Part shown: positions 15,297-56,340 of the stretch, piece after piece
Numbering within the stretch: the stretch's first letter is position 1
Layout of the letters: each line of letters opens with the position of its first letter
Origin: Gemmataceae bacterium
GTDB lineage: Bacteria; Planctomycetota; Planctomycetia; Gemmatales; Gemmataceae
Assembly (NCBI GenBank): GCA_009692005.1
Contig: SHZZ01000019.1
Location: 1 to 56,543 of the forward strand
Reading direction: 5' to 3'
DNA length: 56,543 nt
Position numbers and translations under genes: made by a program
Notes under the pieces: model-generated
Told to the model about the DNA's origin: nothing
Seen by the model: the letters and a program-made list of their open reading frames with translations, nothing else
The model's database searches: none

Positions 15297-18200
15297 TCAA
15301 TCCTTGTTGAAGATATCGGGATATTTTTCCCTGAGGCGGGTCCAGATGGCCTGGGCTGCCTTGGGAGTTAGGTTCACCGTATTGGCGCCATCCTCCGTCA
15401 ATTGCATGGAGGATTGCATCTTGGCATATTCCTGAATGTCCTGAATTTCAAACTCCTCCTTTTTATTCAATTGCCAGGCATTCAAAAAAACCGTGTTGGA
15501 AGAACGGAGTAAAACTGGCAAGGTCGGATGGAGAAGACCAGGGCCGGCCAGCGCGCCCGGCAATTTCCTGGGGATTACCACCGGTTCGCCGGAATCGCAA
15601 TTCCACAAACGATTCATGCCATCGGTAGCCGAGGTCAAGAGCCAGTTCCCCTGGCGGTTGAATTGCAGCGAAAGGACCGTTCCCTTGTGCTTGAACGGAG
15701 GGAAAAGGCGAGCGCCATTTTGGAAATTCCAGAGGATGGCGACGTTATCCTCACCGCCAGTGGCCAGCACGCTTTCTCTGGGAGAGAAAAGGGCGGCGCT
15801 GATATTCGTCGCGTGTTTGATCTCCTCCTCCCAGGCCTGAAACATATCTTTGCCGTTTTCCAAATTCCAGACACGAGTGTTATGGGTGGTGGAAAGGCCC
15901 CAGGGCTTGCTTGGATGAAAGTAAAAGCCATTAATCACGCCGTCCAGAGGCAAGTCCTGGGGGTGTTGCAAGTCGGTGGGTTGGCCAAATTCAGAATAGG
16001 CAAATAGGGAACATTTCTTTTCCCCGCCGAACAGGGCAAGGAATTTTCCCTGTGGGTGGAAAGAGACCATGGCCTGATAGCGGGTCTTGCGGGGGAAGTC
16101 GAGGGTTTGATCGGGATGGGCCAGAACCCAGTGTCGGACACTGCCGTCGGTGAATCCAGCAATCAGCCCGGTTTCCGCCGGATGAAAAGCCAAGGAGGTC
16201 ACCTCGGTTTTCATCCCTGGACCGGGCACCAGGAGAGAAAGCGCAGGGGCTCCTAATTGCCAGGCCAGCACTTGACCCGCCTCGTTGCCAAAAGCCAGCC
16301 AACCCCCTTTGGAGGAAGCGGCGAAGGCCGTTGGCCTGGAAGTGGCTTTCTCCGGCAGGGAGAAGACGCGGGGGGGGATTTTCAGCGCTTCCATGGGATT
16401 GGCAAAACCGTTTTCCCAAAAGTACAGCTCCCCCTTGCGGGAGACGGCGGCAAGCCAGTTCCCCGCTTGGGAAAAATGTAAAAACTCCAGCGGCTCGCGG
16501 CCGTCGCCTGCCTTCATGGCCAGGACACCGGCTGGCTTTTCCACTTTCCAATAAGCGACCATGTGATCATCACTGCAAGAGAGAAGGTTGCTTTTTTGCG
16601 GATGGAATTTCAAATCATTGATGCAGCCGCTTTGCATCAAGGTCGAACCCAAAGGGCTTCCGGTGGCCATATCCCACAAGCGCACGGTATTGTCGTCGCT
16701 GCCAGTTGCCAGGATCTCGCCATCGTGGCTGATATCTGCGGATTCAATGTAACTCTCGTGGCTGACACTGAAGACAAATTTGCCGCTGGGAATTTCCCAC
16801 AGGATGGCTTGGCAGTCCTTGGAAAAGGTGACCAGGCTTTTTTCGCCCGGGGAAAAGCGGGCGCCCTGGACAGCGGCCTTGTGGGAAAGAACTGCCTTGA
16901 GCTGGCCGCTTTCGACTTCCCATAATTTTGCCGTGCCATTTTTGGAGGTTGTGGCCATCCACTTTCCCGAAGGGCTGAAAATGGCCCCCGTCAATTGGTC
17001 GTCGTGCGTGAAAAGCGTTTTTTCCGGTGAGTTCAGTGAAAAAAGATAAGCAGAGCGGCCGACGCAGGCGGCAAAGCGCCTGCTGTCCGGGTGGCAGGCC
17101 AGAAAATTGACCCCCTTTGCCACCTGCACCTTTTGTTCGATTACCCCGCGGGACAAGTCCCAAACCACGATGATGCCGTCGTTGGCGCTGGTGACTAAAC
17201 TTTTTCCGTCTGGCGCCAGCGCCATGAAGAAAGCATCCGGGCCGCGGTCCGTGCCGTGAAACAGCAGCTGGCCCAGGGGTTTATTTTCCTTGATGCTCCA
17301 GAGGAGGACGGCGGCATCCTCGTAAGAGGCGAGAAAGCGATCGTTATCCACAAGAGCGATATCGAGAATGGGGATGGGGTCGCCGGGAATCGCCTTGTGC
17401 CTGAAAAAATCGGTTTTCACCCCATCGCGGACAAACTGCACACCTCCCTCAGACCCGGCAGTGAGAAAACCTGTTCCGTCAGGAAGGAATTTTCCCTTCA
17501 CCACGGGGCCATCGTGGACGCCGAGGTAAAGGTAAAAAGGAATCTGGTCGAGGACGGCGCCGAGGCGGTAGCGCAACTCCTCGAGCCGTTCCTTGCTGGC
17601 ACCAAGCTCGGCTTCTTTTTCCAGCGCCGAGGCCAGCCACAGCGCCGCCTGGCTGAAATCCCCCTGTTCCATCATGGAGATGCCCTGGTTGATTTGCAGT
17701 TGCACGATTTGCTTCAGGTTCTTCCGTTCCCGGTAATGTTGGAAGAAGAAAAGGGAAATCAAAACGAGCGCGGCGCCCAGTAGAGCCGAGGCCCGCCAGG
17801 GGTGGCGGAAAGTCCAGCGGGAAAGGCGTTCCCAGGTGGTTGGGGCGCGGGCCTGGATATGGTCGCCAGATATAAACGCGCGCAGGTCGCTGGCCAGGGC
17901 GGCAGCATCGGCATAGCGCTTCTTGGGATTCTTCTCCAGGCACTTCAGACAAATGGTTTCCAGATTGCGGGGAATTCCCGGGCGGAAAGTACTGGGGGAA
18001 ATTGGGTCATCGTAAACGACCTGGCGCAAGGTTTCCATGATCGTGCCGCCTAAGAAAGGCGGCTTGCCAACCAGCATTTCATACAGAATGGCGCCAAGGG
18101 AATAGATGTCGGTGGCGGGACCAATGGCGCCGAACTGCGGATTGGCCTGTTCGGTGGCCATGTAGCATGGGGTCCCTACGATGGCCCGTGTGTGGGTCAG

Positions 18201-18956
18201 TCTTTGCTGGCTGTCCATTTTTTTTGCCAGGCCAAAATCGCTGATCTTTCCGGTAATCCCCTGCAGGTCCTCGAGTTCAAGTTCTTGGGTTGCCTTGGCC
18301 ACCTTTTTCCCTCCCGCCAAGAGGATGTTTCCGGGTTTCAGGTCGCGATGAATCACGCCGCGCAGGTGCGCCGTTTGAATGCCCTCGGCCAGGCTGACCA
18401 GCAGGGTGGCGGCGGCCTTGGGCGAGAAAAGGCGGTTGGCCAGCACCACCTCCAGACCCACCCCATCGACCAATTCCATGACCAAGAAGGGCATCTCCCC
18501 AACTTCATTGACATCAAAAATCTGCACGATGTTGGCATGTTGCATCATGCCCAGCGCCGCCGCTTCCATTTTCAAACGAGATTTCAAATCGGCGGAAAGG
18601 TGCCCGCCCTGGAACAAGGTCTTGATAGCCACTTCCCGGCCGAGGCTGGGCTGGACGGCTCGGTAGACGACTCCCATGCCGCCACGACCTATCTCCCCTT
18701 TGATCTCGTAGCCTGGAAAATGGAGCACCCCTGGCGCCGGGCTTTCCAGATTCTTGGGGATATCTCCCAGTGGGAGCGGCTGGAATTGGGTGTCCAGTTC
18801 TAAGGTCAATGTGGGATTGCCTTGCAGGACTTTTTTCGCTTGATCGAGAAGATCGGTGTCCCCAGCGCACAGTTCTTCCAGCCGGACGGTCACTCCCTGG
18901 CACAACTTTTCCCGGTAGAGCTTGAGAATCGACTCTAGTTTGTTGTCAGGGTTCAT
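15297..18956 (-). CDS. Membrane Ser/Thr protein kinase with WD40 repeats
   Basis: 1219-residue Hanks-type kinase. The kinase domain spans about residues 83-365. It shows the Gly loop GEIGRGGMGVVY (87-98), VAIK lysine (K112), catalytic HRDLKPGN (203-210), DFGLAK (240-245) and a GTPCYMATEQ activation-segment end. A transmembrane helix lies at about 388-406 (ALLGAALVLISLFFF), then a short TPR-like segment (QGDFSQAALWLASALEKE). About 700 residues of WD40 repeats follow, many ending in GTAKLWE, NTVRLWD or VAILWN. Catalytic residues all appear intact. The architecture is characteristic of planctomycetes. The kinase should face the cytoplasm and the propellers the other side, if the single helix is the only one. 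Confidence 0.95.
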   Translation of the reverse strand: MNPDNKLESILKLYREKLCQGVTVRLEELCAGDTDLLDQAKKVLQGNPTLTLELDTQFQPLPLGDIPKNLESPAPGVLHFPGYEIKGEIGRGGMGVVYRAVQPSLGREVAIKTLFQGGHLSADLKSRLKMEAAALGMMQHANIVQIFDVNEVGEMPFLVMELVDGVGLEVVLANRLFSPKAAATLLVSLAEGIQTAHLRGVIHRDLKPGNILLAGGKKVAKATQELELEDLQGITGKISDFGLAKKMDSQQRLTHTRAIVGTPCYMATEQANPQFGAIGPATDIYSLGAILYEMLVGKPPFLGGTIMETLRQVVYDDPISPSTFRPGIPRNLETICLKCLEKNPKKRYADAAALASDLRAFISGDHIQARAPTTWERLSRWTFRHPWRASALLGAALVLISLFFFQHYRERKNLKQIVQLQINQGISMMEQGDFSQAALWLASALEKEAELGASKERLEELRYRLGAVLDQIPFYLYLGVHDGPVVKGKFLPDGTGFLTAGSEGGVQFVRDGVKTDFFRHKAIPGDPIPILDIALVDNDRFLASYEDAAVLLWSIKENKPLGQLLFHGTDRGPDAFFMALAPDGKSLVTSANDGIIVVWDLSRGVIEQKVQVAKGVNFLACHPDSRRFAACVGRSAYLFSLNSPEKTLFTHDDQLTGAIFSPSGKWMATTSKNGTAKLWEVESGQLKAVLSHKAAVQGARFSPGEKSLVTFSKDCQAILWEIPSGKFVFSVSHESYIESADISHDGEILATGSDDNTVRLWDMATGSPLGSTLMQSGCINDLKFHPQKSNLLSCSDDHMVAYWKVEKPAGVLAMKAGDGREPLEFLHFSQAGNWLAAVSRKGELYFWENGFANPMEALKIPPRVFSLPEKATSRPTAFAASSKGGWLAFGNEAGQVLAWQLGAPALSLLVPGPGMKTEVTSLAFHPAETGLIAGFTDGSVRHWVLAHPDQTLDFPRKTRYQAMVSFHPQGKFLALFGGEKKCSLFAYSEFGQPTDLQHPQDLPLDGVINGFYFHPSKPWGLSTTHNTRVWNLENGKDMFQAWEEEIKHATNISAALFSPRESVLATGGEDNVAILWNFQNGARLFPPFKHKGTVLSLQFNRQGNWLLTSATDGMNRLWNCDSGEPVVIPRKLPGALAGPGLLHPTLPVLLRSSNTVFLNAWQLNKKEEFEIQDIQEYAKMQSSMQLTEDGANTVNLTPKAAQAIWTRLREKYPDIFNKD

Positions 18957-47308: not shown

Positions 47309-50137
47309 ATGAACGGCGCTCTTTTACTTTGCGGCGCACTGGCCTGGTCGAGCCCGGCCTGGCCGGGGGATGAGGCGGCCTTAAAGGCCTACCTGGCCAT
47401 ACCCCAAAAGATCAAACAGGGGACGCCGATCGCTGCGCTGCAAACACTCTGCTTCGCCGCCGACGGCTACTCCACCCACCCCATTCTTATCAAGGAAGCG
47501 ATTAATTGCCTCGACATCGACCAGGCCGCCGTTCCCATCAAGGTCGCTGGGCTGCTCGCCCTTGAACTCGAGGAAATCCTCGACGACCTGGGGATCAACC
47601 TCGGCGGGCTGGCCATCAACCAGGGGAAGGACCGCGAGGTGGTTCACGAGGAACCCGGGATTTCCATCGCCATGGAAAAAGGGAAGGACGGGTTGTGGCG
47701 GTTCAACCGGCAAACGGTGGCGCGCATCCCGGCCATGCGCCAGGCCGCCACCAGCAAGGTCAACGCCATGATAAAAAGCGCCAACCAGCTCCTGCACGGC
47801 CGCACCGACCCAACCACGACCATGGTTACTTTTCTGGCCCATGTGTGGCAAAAGGAGTTCGATGCGGCGACAGAACACCTCGATTTGAATTTTCTCTCTC
47901 CGTTGGAAAAACAAAAAAAGGGCCGCATGCTGGCCTGGAAACTCGCCTGTGTCATTCAACGCCGCGGCTATGTTTACAGCCAGGAAGTCCCCGGCGACCC
48001 AGAATCGCCGCCCTTCACCTGGCTGGCCGAGGCCGACGGGCGCATCAGCGTGCGACGAGTCAAGCAACTGCTGGGCAAAGATTCCTGGCTCTTCGACCAG
48101 GACACCACCAGGGCCATCGAGACCATGTGGGAAAATGTCAAAATGGCGCCGGTGGACCAGCGCTACAAAATTCTCGGCCGTGAAATACCTGCGCCGCCGA
48201 ACCAAGAGAACTTTCCTGTGGAGATCATGCGGGAGAAACCGGCATCGGTGCCGGACAAGTTCTCCACTCCCCGGCGCATGGTGCGCGCTTTCTTCGCCGC
48301 CTGCCTTGAAGCCGAATTCGATGATGCTGCCTTCAATTCCCTGGGCGATTTCCTCGACCTGCAAGATCTGTCGCCAGAAGACCGTGGCAACCTCGGGCCA
48401 AAGCGCGCTGGCATGCTCGAAGCCATTCTCCGAAAAATGAGCCCAGACACGAACACTCTGGCCGACTCTTGGGCCTCACCCACGCAGACCCTGAAAGGCG
48501 ATGACGGGTTATCCGTCGATATTGTCCGGGACCCGGACGGCTACTGGCGTTTCGGCGGGGAGCCTTTGGCGCGGTTGGAAGAGCTTTATAAAAAACTCGA
48601 TTCCAAGGACCGCATGCCCAACTTGTCGTTTCAGGGGCAGACGAATCCGCGGCAGTTGATGTTCCACTTTCTCGTCCAGGTCAACCGCGGCCTCGATGAT
48701 ACCGCTGCCGCTTGCCTCGATCTTTCCACTCTTCCCGCGCCCGCCATCAACGATATCGGCCCCATTCTCGCCTTCAAGTTGAAATACATCATCGACCGAC
48801 TGGGCACCATTTACTTTCAGGAAATCCCCAACGACCCCAACCTGCGCTTGTATGTGATCTACCGCGGCCAGCATGGCAAGATCACCTTGGCGCCGGAAAT
48901 CAGCGAGGGCAAGGCCCCAGTTTGGAAATTCACCTCGGCAACCGTGGCCCAGGTGGAAACCATGTTCCGCGCCCTGGCCGGCACCCCGGTGCGCAAGGAG
49001 CTGGAAACCATGTCGCTGGTGCGCACCGAGCCTTACTTTTGGCTCGAGCCCGGCATCTGGATCTACCTGCGCATTCCACGCCACTTTCACAGAGAATTCC
49101 TCGGACTGGAGGTGTACCAGTGGATCGGCTGCGTCCTCGTCATCCTCGCCGCCTCGTCCTTGTCTTATGTCCTCGGCGTGGGCGTCCGTTTCCTCTTCAC
49201 CTGGTTTTTCCCACATGCCGATAAGCCCGCCTTCCGCAGGCGCTTCCGCCGAAACCTCCGCGCTTTCCGCTTTTTGTTCTTCTTCACACTCCTCTACCAG
49301 CTCATTCCCTGGATCGATCTGCCTCTGAGCCTGGCTGCTCCCTTATATTTTCTGGAAAAAGTGGGAATGACGCTGACACTCGGGTGGTTCGGCCTGCAGG
49401 TGATCGAACTGGTGGCGCTTATTTACGACGCACCGGACTCGGAAGATAAAACCGGCATAATCCTGCCCATGATGATGCCCTTTATCACCCGCATCGCCAA
49501 GGTGGTGGTGGTGGTGTCGGCGATTTCACTCCTGATCATGCATTTGGGCAAAGCCGAGGCGCTCGGTCACTTTCTCGCCGGCCTGGGCATCCTAGGCATC
49601 GGAATCTCGCTCGCCGCCCAGGACTCCCTGAAAAACCTCTTCGGCACCCTGCTGATCATCGGCGACCGCACTTGCAGGGTTGGCGATCACATTATCGTCA
49701 ACGATAAAGAAGGGGTGATCGAAGAGGTGGGTTTCCGCGCCACCAAAATGCGCACCCCGGATGGATCGCTCTTAATTTTTCCCAATGGCATGCTGGCCGC
49801 GTCGATTGTCGATAATTTGGGTTTGCGGATTCACCGCCGCGTCCGCTTGCTGTTTAGCCTGGACATTACCACCCCGCTGGAAAAGATCAACGCCGTAGAA
49901 AAGCACCTGATGGAGTTTCTCAACCAGCAGCCGAACATCGTGACATCAAAGACGGCGGTGGTGTTTTTCAAGTTTGGCGAAACCGGGCTCGATTTCGAAA
50001 TCGTCGTCTATGCCGAGGTGCCCACATCCGACGCCGAGCAGATCCTGCGCGAAAGCATTCTTGAAGGTGTGATCCAAATCACCTTGGAGAAGGAAGCCCG
50101 CGTGGTGCCCTTGAAGGTGAGTAAAAAAGCTTCTTAA
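47309..50137 (+). CDS. Large MscS-family mechanosensitive channel with periplasmic repeats
   Basis: 942 residues. Signal peptide (1-19), then a periplasmic region of about 550 residues made of four related modules (about 37-145, 164-278, 318-430, 443-555). Each module has a helix-rich start, an LDL or LDI, and a W-x-F-x-x-x-T ... VE-x-M(F/W) end. Several membrane helices (about 620-760) and the MscS pore/beta domain follow: LGILGIGISLAAQDSLKNLFG, then DHIIVNDKEGVIEEVGFRAT and RTPDGSLLIFPNG. GAGGAG precedes the ATG. It should open under membrane tension; the modules may sense the envelope. Divergent from the RND pump genes. Confidence 0.93.
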   Translation: MNGALLLCGALAWSSPAWPGDEAALKAYLAIPQKIKQGTPIAALQTLCFAADGYSTHPILIKEAINCLDIDQAAVPIKVAGLLALELEEILDDLGINLGGLAINQGKDREVVHEEPGISIAMEKGKDGLWRFNRQTVARIPAMRQAATSKVNAMIKSANQLLHGRTDPTTTMVTFLAHVWQKEFDAATEHLDLNFLSPLEKQKKGRMLAWKLACVIQRRGYVYSQEVPGDPESPPFTWLAEADGRISVRRVKQLLGKDSWLFDQDTTRAIETMWENVKMAPVDQRYKILGREIPAPPNQENFPVEIMREKPASVPDKFSTPRRMVRAFFAACLEAEFDDAAFNSLGDFLDLQDLSPEDRGNLGPKRAGMLEAILRKMSPDTNTLADSWASPTQTLKGDDGLSVDIVRDPDGYWRFGGEPLARLEELYKKLDSKDRMPNLSFQGQTNPRQLMFHFLVQVNRGLDDTAAACLDLSTLPAPAINDIGPILAFKLKYIIDRLGTIYFQEIPNDPNLRLYVIYRGQHGKITLAPEISEGKAPVWKFTSATVAQVETMFRALAGTPVRKELETMSLVRTEPYFWLEPGIWIYLRIPRHFHREFLGLEVYQWIGCVLVILAASSLSYVLGVGVRFLFTWFFPHADKPAFRRRFRRNLRAFRFLFFFTLLYQLIPWIDLPLSLAAPLYFLEKVGMTLTLGWFGLQVIELVALIYDAPDSEDKTGIILPMMMPFITRIAKVVVVVSAISLLIMHLGKAEALGHFLAGLGILGIGISLAAQDSLKNLFGTLLIIGDRTCRVGDHIIVNDKEGVIEEVGFRATKMRTPDGSLLIFPNGMLAASIVDNLGLRIHRRVRLLFSLDITTPLEKINAVEKHLMEFLNQQPNIVTSKTAVVFFKFGETGLDFEIVVYAEVPTSDAEQILRESILEGVIQITLEKEARVVPLKVSKKAS

Positions 50138-55233: not shown

Positions 55234-55377
55234 ATCAGCACCTAAATAATGGTAAGATTTCCACTCCCCAGGATAGAAAAGAGGGCTCCTGAGGGGAAAT
55301 TAATTTTGGCCCATTTTGGGCAATTCGCGCGCTTACATAAATACGGGGTTCTCTGTTCCACCGCCAGGAGCCTTTCC

Positions 55378-56340
55378 ATGCTGACCCTTGCCGCGCTTTT
55401 TTCCTTTTGCTTGAACAACCCGGCCCAGCTTGCCAAAGAGGAAACCAAGGGGCCGCAAAAAATCAAAGCCGGGGTTTACATTACCCAGGTCTTTGGCCTG
55501 AAAAGCAATGCCGAATTCTTTCAAGCCGATTTTTGGTTTTGGCTGAACTACCCGGGCAAGCCGGTTGACTATTTCAGCAAGATGGAATTTTTCAATTCCC
55601 TGGAAGCGAGGCAAATCACCCGCGATACGGAGGAGATCCAGGGGGTCAACTGGGATGCCGCCAAATATTCCAACAAAATCGCCAAATCCTGGGATGTGGC
55701 CCATTTCCCTTTTGACAAACACACCCTGGAACTGCAGATCGAATCGACCCGGCCTATCAGTGAAATTATTTTAGAACCCGACACCAAGGACTTTGGAATA
55801 AATCCCACCATCGCCATGGATGGCTGGAAAGTGCTGGGCAAAAGGTTGCGCGTAGACCGGGCCAAATACACCTCGCGCTTTGGCGCGCCCAACCCGGAGA
55901 ATGGCGAGGAATTCCACCGCGCCATCCTCAGCATCGAAATCCGGCGCGATGCCCTCAGCCTTTTTTTTAAACTGCACGCCGGCGTTTATGTCACCTTTGC
56001 CATCACCATGTTGTCCTACTTCATGAGCCCGGCGGGGGATGATATTTTCAGCGCCCGCATGGGGCTCATTGTCGCCATGTTGTTCGCTTCCCTGGTCAAT
56101 TTGCAAATCGTCGACAATACCATTGGCCAGACCAACTCTCTTTCGCTTCCCGACAAGATTCACATCTTCACCATGATCAATCTGTTGGTGGCAGTTGCCG
56201 CGACACTTTATTCCAGGCGCTTTTGCGAGAGGGGAAAAAAAGTTTTTGCCAAGGAATTCGACCGCATCTGTTTGGGGCTGCAGTCTCTGGCCTACTTGGG
56301 CCTAAACATTATTTTGATTCTTCTGGCAGCGTATTCTTGA
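55378..56340 (+). CDS. Prokaryotic pentameric ligand-gated ion channel (Cys-loop receptor homologue)
   Basis: 320 residues. Signal peptide (1-19), then an extracellular beta-sandwich domain (about 25-195) containing VAHFPFDKHTLELQIES, the FPFD-centred loop of pentameric ligand-gated channels (FPFD at 110-113). Four membrane helices follow: M1 about 195-216, M2 about 223-246 (ARMGLIVAMLFASLVNLQIV), M3 about 259-279, M4 about 299-319. The M3-M4 loop is only about 20 residues, as in bacterial members such as GLIC and ELIC, and the loop cysteines are absent, also as in bacteria. The frame extends to 55249; ATG 55378 follows CAGGAG. Ligand and ion selectivity unknown. Confidence 0.78.
   Translation: MLTLAALFSFCLNNPAQLAKEETKGPQKIKAGVYITQVFGLKSNAEFFQADFWFWLNYPGKPVDYFSKMEFFNSLEARQITRDTEEIQGVNWDAAKYSNKIAKSWDVAHFPFDKHTLELQIESTRPISEIILEPDTKDFGINPTIAMDGWKVLGKRLRVDRAKYTSRFGAPNPENGEEFHRAILSIEIRRDALSLFFKLHAGVYVTFAITMLSYFMSPAGDDIFSARMGLIVAMLFASLVNLQIVDNTIGQTNSLSLPDKIHIFTMINLLVAVAATLYSRRFCERGKKVFAKEFDRICLGLQSLAYLGLNIILILLAAYS

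What the first reader, a model, noticed from the sequence alone, without database searches (positions are those of the whole stretch)
55378..56340. Cys-loop-type ligand-gated channel homologue in a planctomycete
The FPFD loop, the four-helix layout and short M3-M4 loop fit bacterial pentameric channels. M1 lacks the usual proline, and M2 (with an acidic DD before it) differs from GLIC/ELIC, so gating and selectivity may differ. It is next to, but divergent from, two sulfatases, so environment sensing is possible.
Basis: partly seen in the sequence, partly recalled or inferred. Interest (0 to 1): 0.6.

Follow-up and report, generated by a model that had tools for sequence, protein, structure and literature searches.

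The report
Bacterial cousin of nerve receptor channels
A planctomycete bacterium carries a very divergent relative of the channels that animals use for nerve signalling; it belongs to a widespread microbial branch that lacks a membrane-helix proline thought essential for opening these channels, so it offers a natural test of how such channels work.

Summary
The finding is real. [quoted passage not shown] Pfam's two pLGIC models miss it. A profile of its relatives matches GLIC over the full length at about 1e-30. AlphaFold2 gives a confident beta-sandwich plus four helices (pLDDT 90.9) that superposes on GLIC, GABA-A, GluCl and glycine receptors at Z about 24. The missing M1 proline is not a quirk of this protein. 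The protein falls in a multi-phylum clade (37 sequences sampled) in which 35 lack that proline and all 37 have Phe at the 9' pore gate. Fifteen planctomycete loci found independently through Pfam all keep the proline, and none has Phe at 9'. That proline is needed for function in GLIC and is described as conserved throughout the superfamily (PMC4813548), although the M1 site was listed as 'proline, glycine or serine' in 2004 (PMC549065). The window protein also has an altered pre-M2 filter (DDIFSAR). It is the only pLGIC detected in its genome. Channel activity, ligand, selectivity and pentamer formation were not tested. The sulfatase link is not supported.

The parts
55366..55370 (+). AGGAG, putative ribosome-binding site
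   Evidence: sequence, seven bases before ATG 55378
55378..56340 (+). pLGIC (Pro-loop receptor) subunit gene, 320 aa
   Evidence: family profile vs GLIC E about 1e-30; AF2 fold; Z about 24 to pLGICs
55378..55440 (+). hydrophobic N-terminus, probable signal peptide (inferred)
   Evidence: sequence MLTLAALFSFCLNNPAQLA; low-confidence helix 2-12 in model
55456..55947 (+). extracellular beta-sandwich domain (residues 27-190), no cysteines
   Evidence: DSSP of AF2 model, superposition
55705..55716 (+). Pro-loop motif F110-P111-F112-D113
   Evidence: P111 invariant in the family alignments
55954..56022 (+). M1 helix (residues 193-215); Gly202 (55981-55983) replaces the conserved proline
56038..56058 (+). 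pre-M2 segment D221-D222-I-F-S-A-R227: extra residues against relatives, no acid at -2', Arg at 0'
   Evidence: AF2 M2 helix starts at 221
56038..56124 (+). M2 pore helix (residues 221-249); Gly229 = 2', Ala233 = 6', Phe236 = 9' gate, Val240 = 13'
56146..56229 (+). M3 helix (residues 257-284)
56239..56334 (+). M4 helix (residues 288-319), joined to M3 by three residues

Best explanation
The gene encodes one subunit of a bacterial pLGIC. Inferred working: the subunit is exported and forms a homopentamer in the cytoplasmic membrane, with its beta-sandwich domain in the periplasm. A small ligand or ion at subunit interfaces in that domain pulls on the Pro-loop and the M2-M3 link. This moves the five M2 helices and opens a gate formed by Phe 9'. 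In this clade the coupling must work without the M1 proline bulge; a small residue at that site (here Gly202) and a small-residue-rich M2 are the likely substitute. Shown here: homology, predicted monomer fold, residue identities and clade membership. Inferred: export, pentamer, gating, conduction, ligand. Selectivity is open: I lean slightly to cations (about 0.5) because of D221/D222 at the cytoplasmic mouth, against anions (0.35), because S-A-R-M-G-L resembles the anion-channel P-A-R-V-G-L, or no conduction (0.15).
For: Profile of 34 family members vs PDB: GLIC, positions 42-335 of 339, E about 1e-30. The same clade profile detects planctomycete proteins that pass Pfam Neur_chan_LBD, such as L040 (about 1e-37), over the whole core. 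AF2 pLDDT 90.9 with a strand-rich domain then four helices. Foldseek E 2e-20. VIA-align Z about 24, about 280 residues at 2.1-2.8 A, against GLIC, GABA-A, GluCl and GlyR. Pro-loop proline invariant. 0' arginine present and 9' Phe in 37/37 clade members. Only one pLGIC found in the genome, consistent with a homomer.
Against: The single sequence matches no pLGIC family model above cut-off. It sits on a very long branch, with best identity 30%. It lacks the M1 proline that GLIC, nicotinic and 5-HT3 receptors need (PMC4813548). There is no close homologue with which to test for purifying selection. No pentamer could be modelled with these tools.
Confidence: 0.85

Rival explanations
1. A pLGIC-fold protein that no longer conducts: a ligand-sensing or membrane protein whose M1 and M2 have drifted, so the M1 proline loss reflects relaxed constraint.
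For: Proline substitutions abolish current in GLIC (PMC4813548); long branch of the window protein; Phe 9' and Val 13' make a hydrophobic constriction.
Against: M2 is among the most conserved parts of the clade (0' Arg 36/37, 9' Phe 37/37, 6' Gly 33/37), which is not expected after loss of conduction. The clade spans many phyla.
Confidence: 0.12
2. A subunit that works only in a hetero-pentamer with a second pLGIC that keeps the M1 proline.
For: Some clade members sit directly beside a second pLGIC gene that has the proline: L050, L053, and dCache-fused partners at L061, L062, L077.
Against: No second pLGIC was found in the window genome by three searches, though the assembly is in 99 contigs and the A4 search had no positive control. 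About three quarters of the loci examined have a single gene within the flanks held.
Confidence: 0.1
3. An unrelated beta-sandwich plus four-helix membrane protein that only resembles pLGICs.
For: No single-sequence match to Pfam pLGIC models.
Against: Full-length profile match to GLIC at 1e-30 and full-length superposition at Z 24.
Confidence: 0.01

Closest known systems
GLIC (Gloeobacter ligand-gated ion channel, proton-gated)
   Same: Fold, order of domains, Pro-loop, short M3-M4 loop; full-length profile match, 18% identity in the structural alignment
   Different: GLIC has the M1 proline, Glu just before M2 and Ile at 9'; the window protein has Gly202, S-A-R and Phe 9'
Metazoan anion channels (GABA-A, GlyR, GluCl)
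   Same: Fold (Z about 24); pre-M2 and M2 start S-A-R-M-G-L resembles P-A-R-V-G-L of GlyR
   Different: No Cys-loop cysteines, no M1 proline, no long M3-M4 loop; 11-14% identity; similarity at the filter may be convergence
Flavobacteriales and Bacteroidetes homologues L044, L045, L046 (uncharacterised)
   Same: Nearest relatives in the tree (98 support for a five-row group); no M1 proline, Phe 9', LPDKIH at M2-M3 shared with L044/L045
   Different: Keep an acid just before the 0' Arg region; no extra residues before M2; about 30% identity
Prokaryotic pLGICs fused to sensor domains (PBP, Cache), as in Tasneem 2004 (PMC549065), and DeCLIC with its extra N-terminal domain (PMC9897478)
   Same: Same core module
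   Different: The window protein has no added N-terminal domain

Membership tests
pLGIC / Pro-loop receptor superfamily | Extracellular beta-sandwich followed by four transmembrane helices, full length | tested here: met
   AF2 pLDDT 90.9; Z about 24 over about 280 residues
pLGIC / Pro-loop receptor superfamily | Conserved proline in the beta6-beta7 loop (absolutely conserved per PMC4795631) | tested here: met
   F110-P111-F112-D113; P111 invariant
pLGIC / Pro-loop receptor superfamily | Sequence homology to known members | tested here: met
   Single sequence: phmmer 0.011 to GLIC, no Pfam pLGIC hit, TIGR00860 0.038. Family profile: GLIC 1e-30
pLGIC / Pro-loop receptor superfamily | Basic residue at M2 0' (79% in PMC4795631) | tested here: met
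   Arg227; 36/37 Arg in the clade
pLGIC / Pro-loop receptor superfamily | Proline in M1 (common, not defining: P, G or S in PMC549065) | tested here: not met
   Gly202; absent in 35 of 37 clade members
pLGIC / Pro-loop receptor superfamily | Pentameric assembly around an M2-lined pore | not testable with these tools
   Only single chains can be predicted here
pLGIC / Pro-loop receptor superfamily | Ligand-gated ion conduction | not testable with these tools
   Needs electrophysiology or flux assay
Cys-loop receptors (strict sense) | Disulfide-forming cysteine pair in the loop | tested here: not met
   No cysteine in residues 27-190 (sequence); usual for prokaryotic pLGICs

The most novel reading that the evidence does not exclude
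The clade is a distinct class of pLGICs that gates by a different internal route: no M1 proline bulge, a ring of Phe at 9', and a glycine- and alanine-rich M2. The window member in addition carries a rebuilt charge filter on a longer M2.
Probability: 0.3. Interest if true: 0.65.

Novelty: new variant of a known kind. Interest (0 to 1): 0.42.

Why it matters
The M1 proline is described as the most conserved residue of the pLGIC membrane helices (PMC4795631), and conventional mutants at that site are dead in GLIC (PMC4813548). A broad natural clade without it, in which Phe at the 9' gate is invariant, lets one ask whether the proline bulge is a mechanical necessity or one solution among several. 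These proteins are also largely invisible to routine Pfam annotation: in 392 planctomycete genomes the Pfam model rang in 14 and the window protein in 18, with only two genomes shared between the two lists, so such channels are under-counted.

Tried and rejected
Direct Pfam and NCBIfam scans of the protein alone: no significant pLGIC match, so intermediates and profiles were needed. PF02931 against the own genome: nothing, with no positive control. Viral contigs with the protein and with an alignment: no relatives. A conserved non-channel neighbour (sulfatase or other): none recurs in the 10 kb around relatives, apart from an ABC-ATPase-like ORF in three loci, an ORF cluster shared by L044, L045 and L046, and antisense ORFs of the channel itself. 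Reading an M1 kink from predicted structure: M1 is one unbroken helix by DSSP both in the window model and in a proline-bearing relative, so this does not separate them. Predicting selectivity from the pre-M2 motif: not safe in prokaryotes according to PMC4795631. Sampling pLGICs from other phyla with the genome search failed because only genome handles are accepted as centre. Paper searches for planctomycete pLGICs and for pLGICs with Cache domains returned nothing in the library.

Full report
What is there. The ORF 55378-56340 (+) is intact and encodes 320 residues. AGGAG lies seven bases before its ATG. The protein starts with a hydrophobic stretch, continues with about 165 residues rich in beta strands, and ends with four hydrophobic helices. 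The window contig ends 203 bases after the stop, so the downstream neighbour is unknown. The window carries typical planctomycete genes (PSCyt1/PSD1, DUF1501, DUF1559).

Is it a pLGIC. The protein alone is too divergent for standard models: no pLGIC hit in Pfam, TIGR00860 at 0.038, and phmmer to GLIC at 0.011. Searches of planctomycete genomes brought in relatives at 20-29% identity, most of them matching over nearly the full length, and a scan of bacterial and archaeal genomes brought in 43 more loci from many phyla. Several of the planctomycete relatives pass Pfam's Neur_chan_LBD (L036, L040, L041), and the profile of the window's clade detects these over the whole core at 1e-28 to 1e-37. 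The family profile A3 matches GLIC chains in the PDB from position 42 to 335 of 339 at about 1e-30. AlphaFold2 with that alignment gives mean pLDDT 90.9, with a strand-rich domain followed by helices 193-215, 221-249, 257-284 and 288-319. Foldseek's best match is GLIC (2e-20), and VIA-align gives Z about 24 over about 280 residues to GLIC, GABA-A, GluCl and glycine receptors. The Pro-loop proline, P111, is invariant among the aligned relatives. This settles membership of the pLGIC superfamily by sequence and predicted fold. It is not a Cys-loop receptor in the strict sense, since the extracellular domain has no cysteine.

The M1 proline. In an alignment that includes GLIC, the GLIC M1 proline falls on Gly202 of the window protein. 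In a tree of 68 sequences built without that column and without the pre-M2 columns, the sequences lacking the proline need only three label changes, against 22.9 in shuffles. They form, with two proline-bearing members (L071, L031), one clade of 37 rows, support 96. A tree from the extracellular domain alone needs four changes, so the grouping does not come only from the pore. The clade holds Planctomycetota, Bacteroidota, Myxococcota, Pseudomonadota, Acidobacteriota, Actinomycetota, Thermodesulfobacteriota and a methanobacterial archaeon. At the M1 site it has Gly 13, Thr 8, Ala 8, Ser 6 and Pro 2.

The pore. All 37 clade members have Phe at 9', the usual hydrophobic gate; outside the clade one sequence does (L016). 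The clade also has Arg 0' (36/37), Gly 6' (33/37) and usually an acid followed by proline just before Arg 0'. As a check on sampling, fifteen planctomycete loci found independently with Pfam PF02931 all have the M1 proline; 9' is Leu in fourteen and Val in one. Because the loss is essentially one event on the tree, the joint pattern of proline loss and Phe 9' is a clade signature, not proof of co-evolution. The clade was also collected with a clade-derived query, so its boundaries may move with wider sampling.

What is special in the window protein. It has extra residues before M2 (SPAGDDIFSAR against KPTDLD-PR), no acid at -2', Ala instead of Pro at -1', Ala instead of Gly at 6', and Val at 13'. 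AlphaFold2 starts M2 at D221, six residues before Arg 0', while in the proline-bearing relative L074 it starts three residues before. So M2 is predicted to be about one turn longer at the cytoplasmic end. The filter sequence S-A-R-M-G-L resembles P-A-R-V-G-L of the glycine receptor, but this is not a safe guide in prokaryotes (PMC4795631), and the two aspartates at the mouth point the other way.

How it most likely works. Inferred from family knowledge: secretion, homopentamer, periplasmic ligand site between subunits, coupling through the Pro-loop and the M2-M3 link, and opening of the Phe 9' ring. A homomer is favoured because no second pLGIC was found in the genome. The A4 search had no positive control, and the genome is in 99 contigs. 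The sulfatases next door are transcribed away from this gene, and no shared pathway neighbour was found near relatives, so the neighbourhood gives no clue to the ligand. The gene is patchy: 3 of 102 genomes of the order have a detectable copy, which suggests loss and lateral transfer.

What was known. Prokaryotic pLGICs have been known since 2004 (PMC549065), and that paper already listed the M1 helix-bending site as usually proline, glycine or serine. Phe at 9' in 13% of sequences was reported in 2016, together with the M1 proline as the most conserved membrane position (PMC4795631). A 2015 study found the proline essential in GLIC and described it as conserved throughout the superfamily (PMC4813548). 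I found no paper in the library that names this clade or ties the two features together, but only a few searches were made and most subscription papers are not held. The protein itself is a new, very divergent member; the clade is best called a variant within the superfamily.

Noticed in passing
L061 2676-5912; L062 1297-5909; L077 523-3828; L078 1573-4772: Proline-less pLGIC genes lie directly downstream of a second pLGIC gene fused to a dCache sensor domain (Pfam matches shown for L061, L062, L077) that keeps the M1 proline; L062 has a third pLGIC gene before it. These look like operons for hetero-oligomeric sensor channels.
   Followed up: partly
L046 4944-7019; L050 54-2161; L053 3835-5900; L085 3666-8301: Tandem pLGIC genes. 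At L046 both copies lack the M1 proline; at L050 and L053 the upstream copy keeps it.
   Followed up: partly
L016 499-2436; L024 1429-3336 (minus strand): Planctomycete pLGICs with a long N-terminal extension; in L016 it is a TAXI/NMT1-like solute-binding domain (TRAP_TAXI E 1e-67), and L024's looks similar but was not scanned. L016 also has Phe at 9' outside the main clade.
   Followed up: partly
L083 2084-4426; L085 3666-5894: pLGICs fused to a type I periplasmic binding domain (Peripla_BP_6).
   Followed up: no
L061, L062, L063, L065, L071, L076, L077, L082: A sub-clade has a hydrophobic N-terminal helix followed by a roughly 50-residue linker rather than a plain signal peptide, suggesting a membrane anchor and five-helix topology.
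   Followed up: no
window 47309-50137: A 942-residue protein ending in an MscS-type mechanosensitive channel domain, so a second channel-type gene lies a few kb from the pLGIC.
   Followed up: no
window 15297-18956: Protein kinase fused to a long run of WD40 repeats.
   Followed up: no
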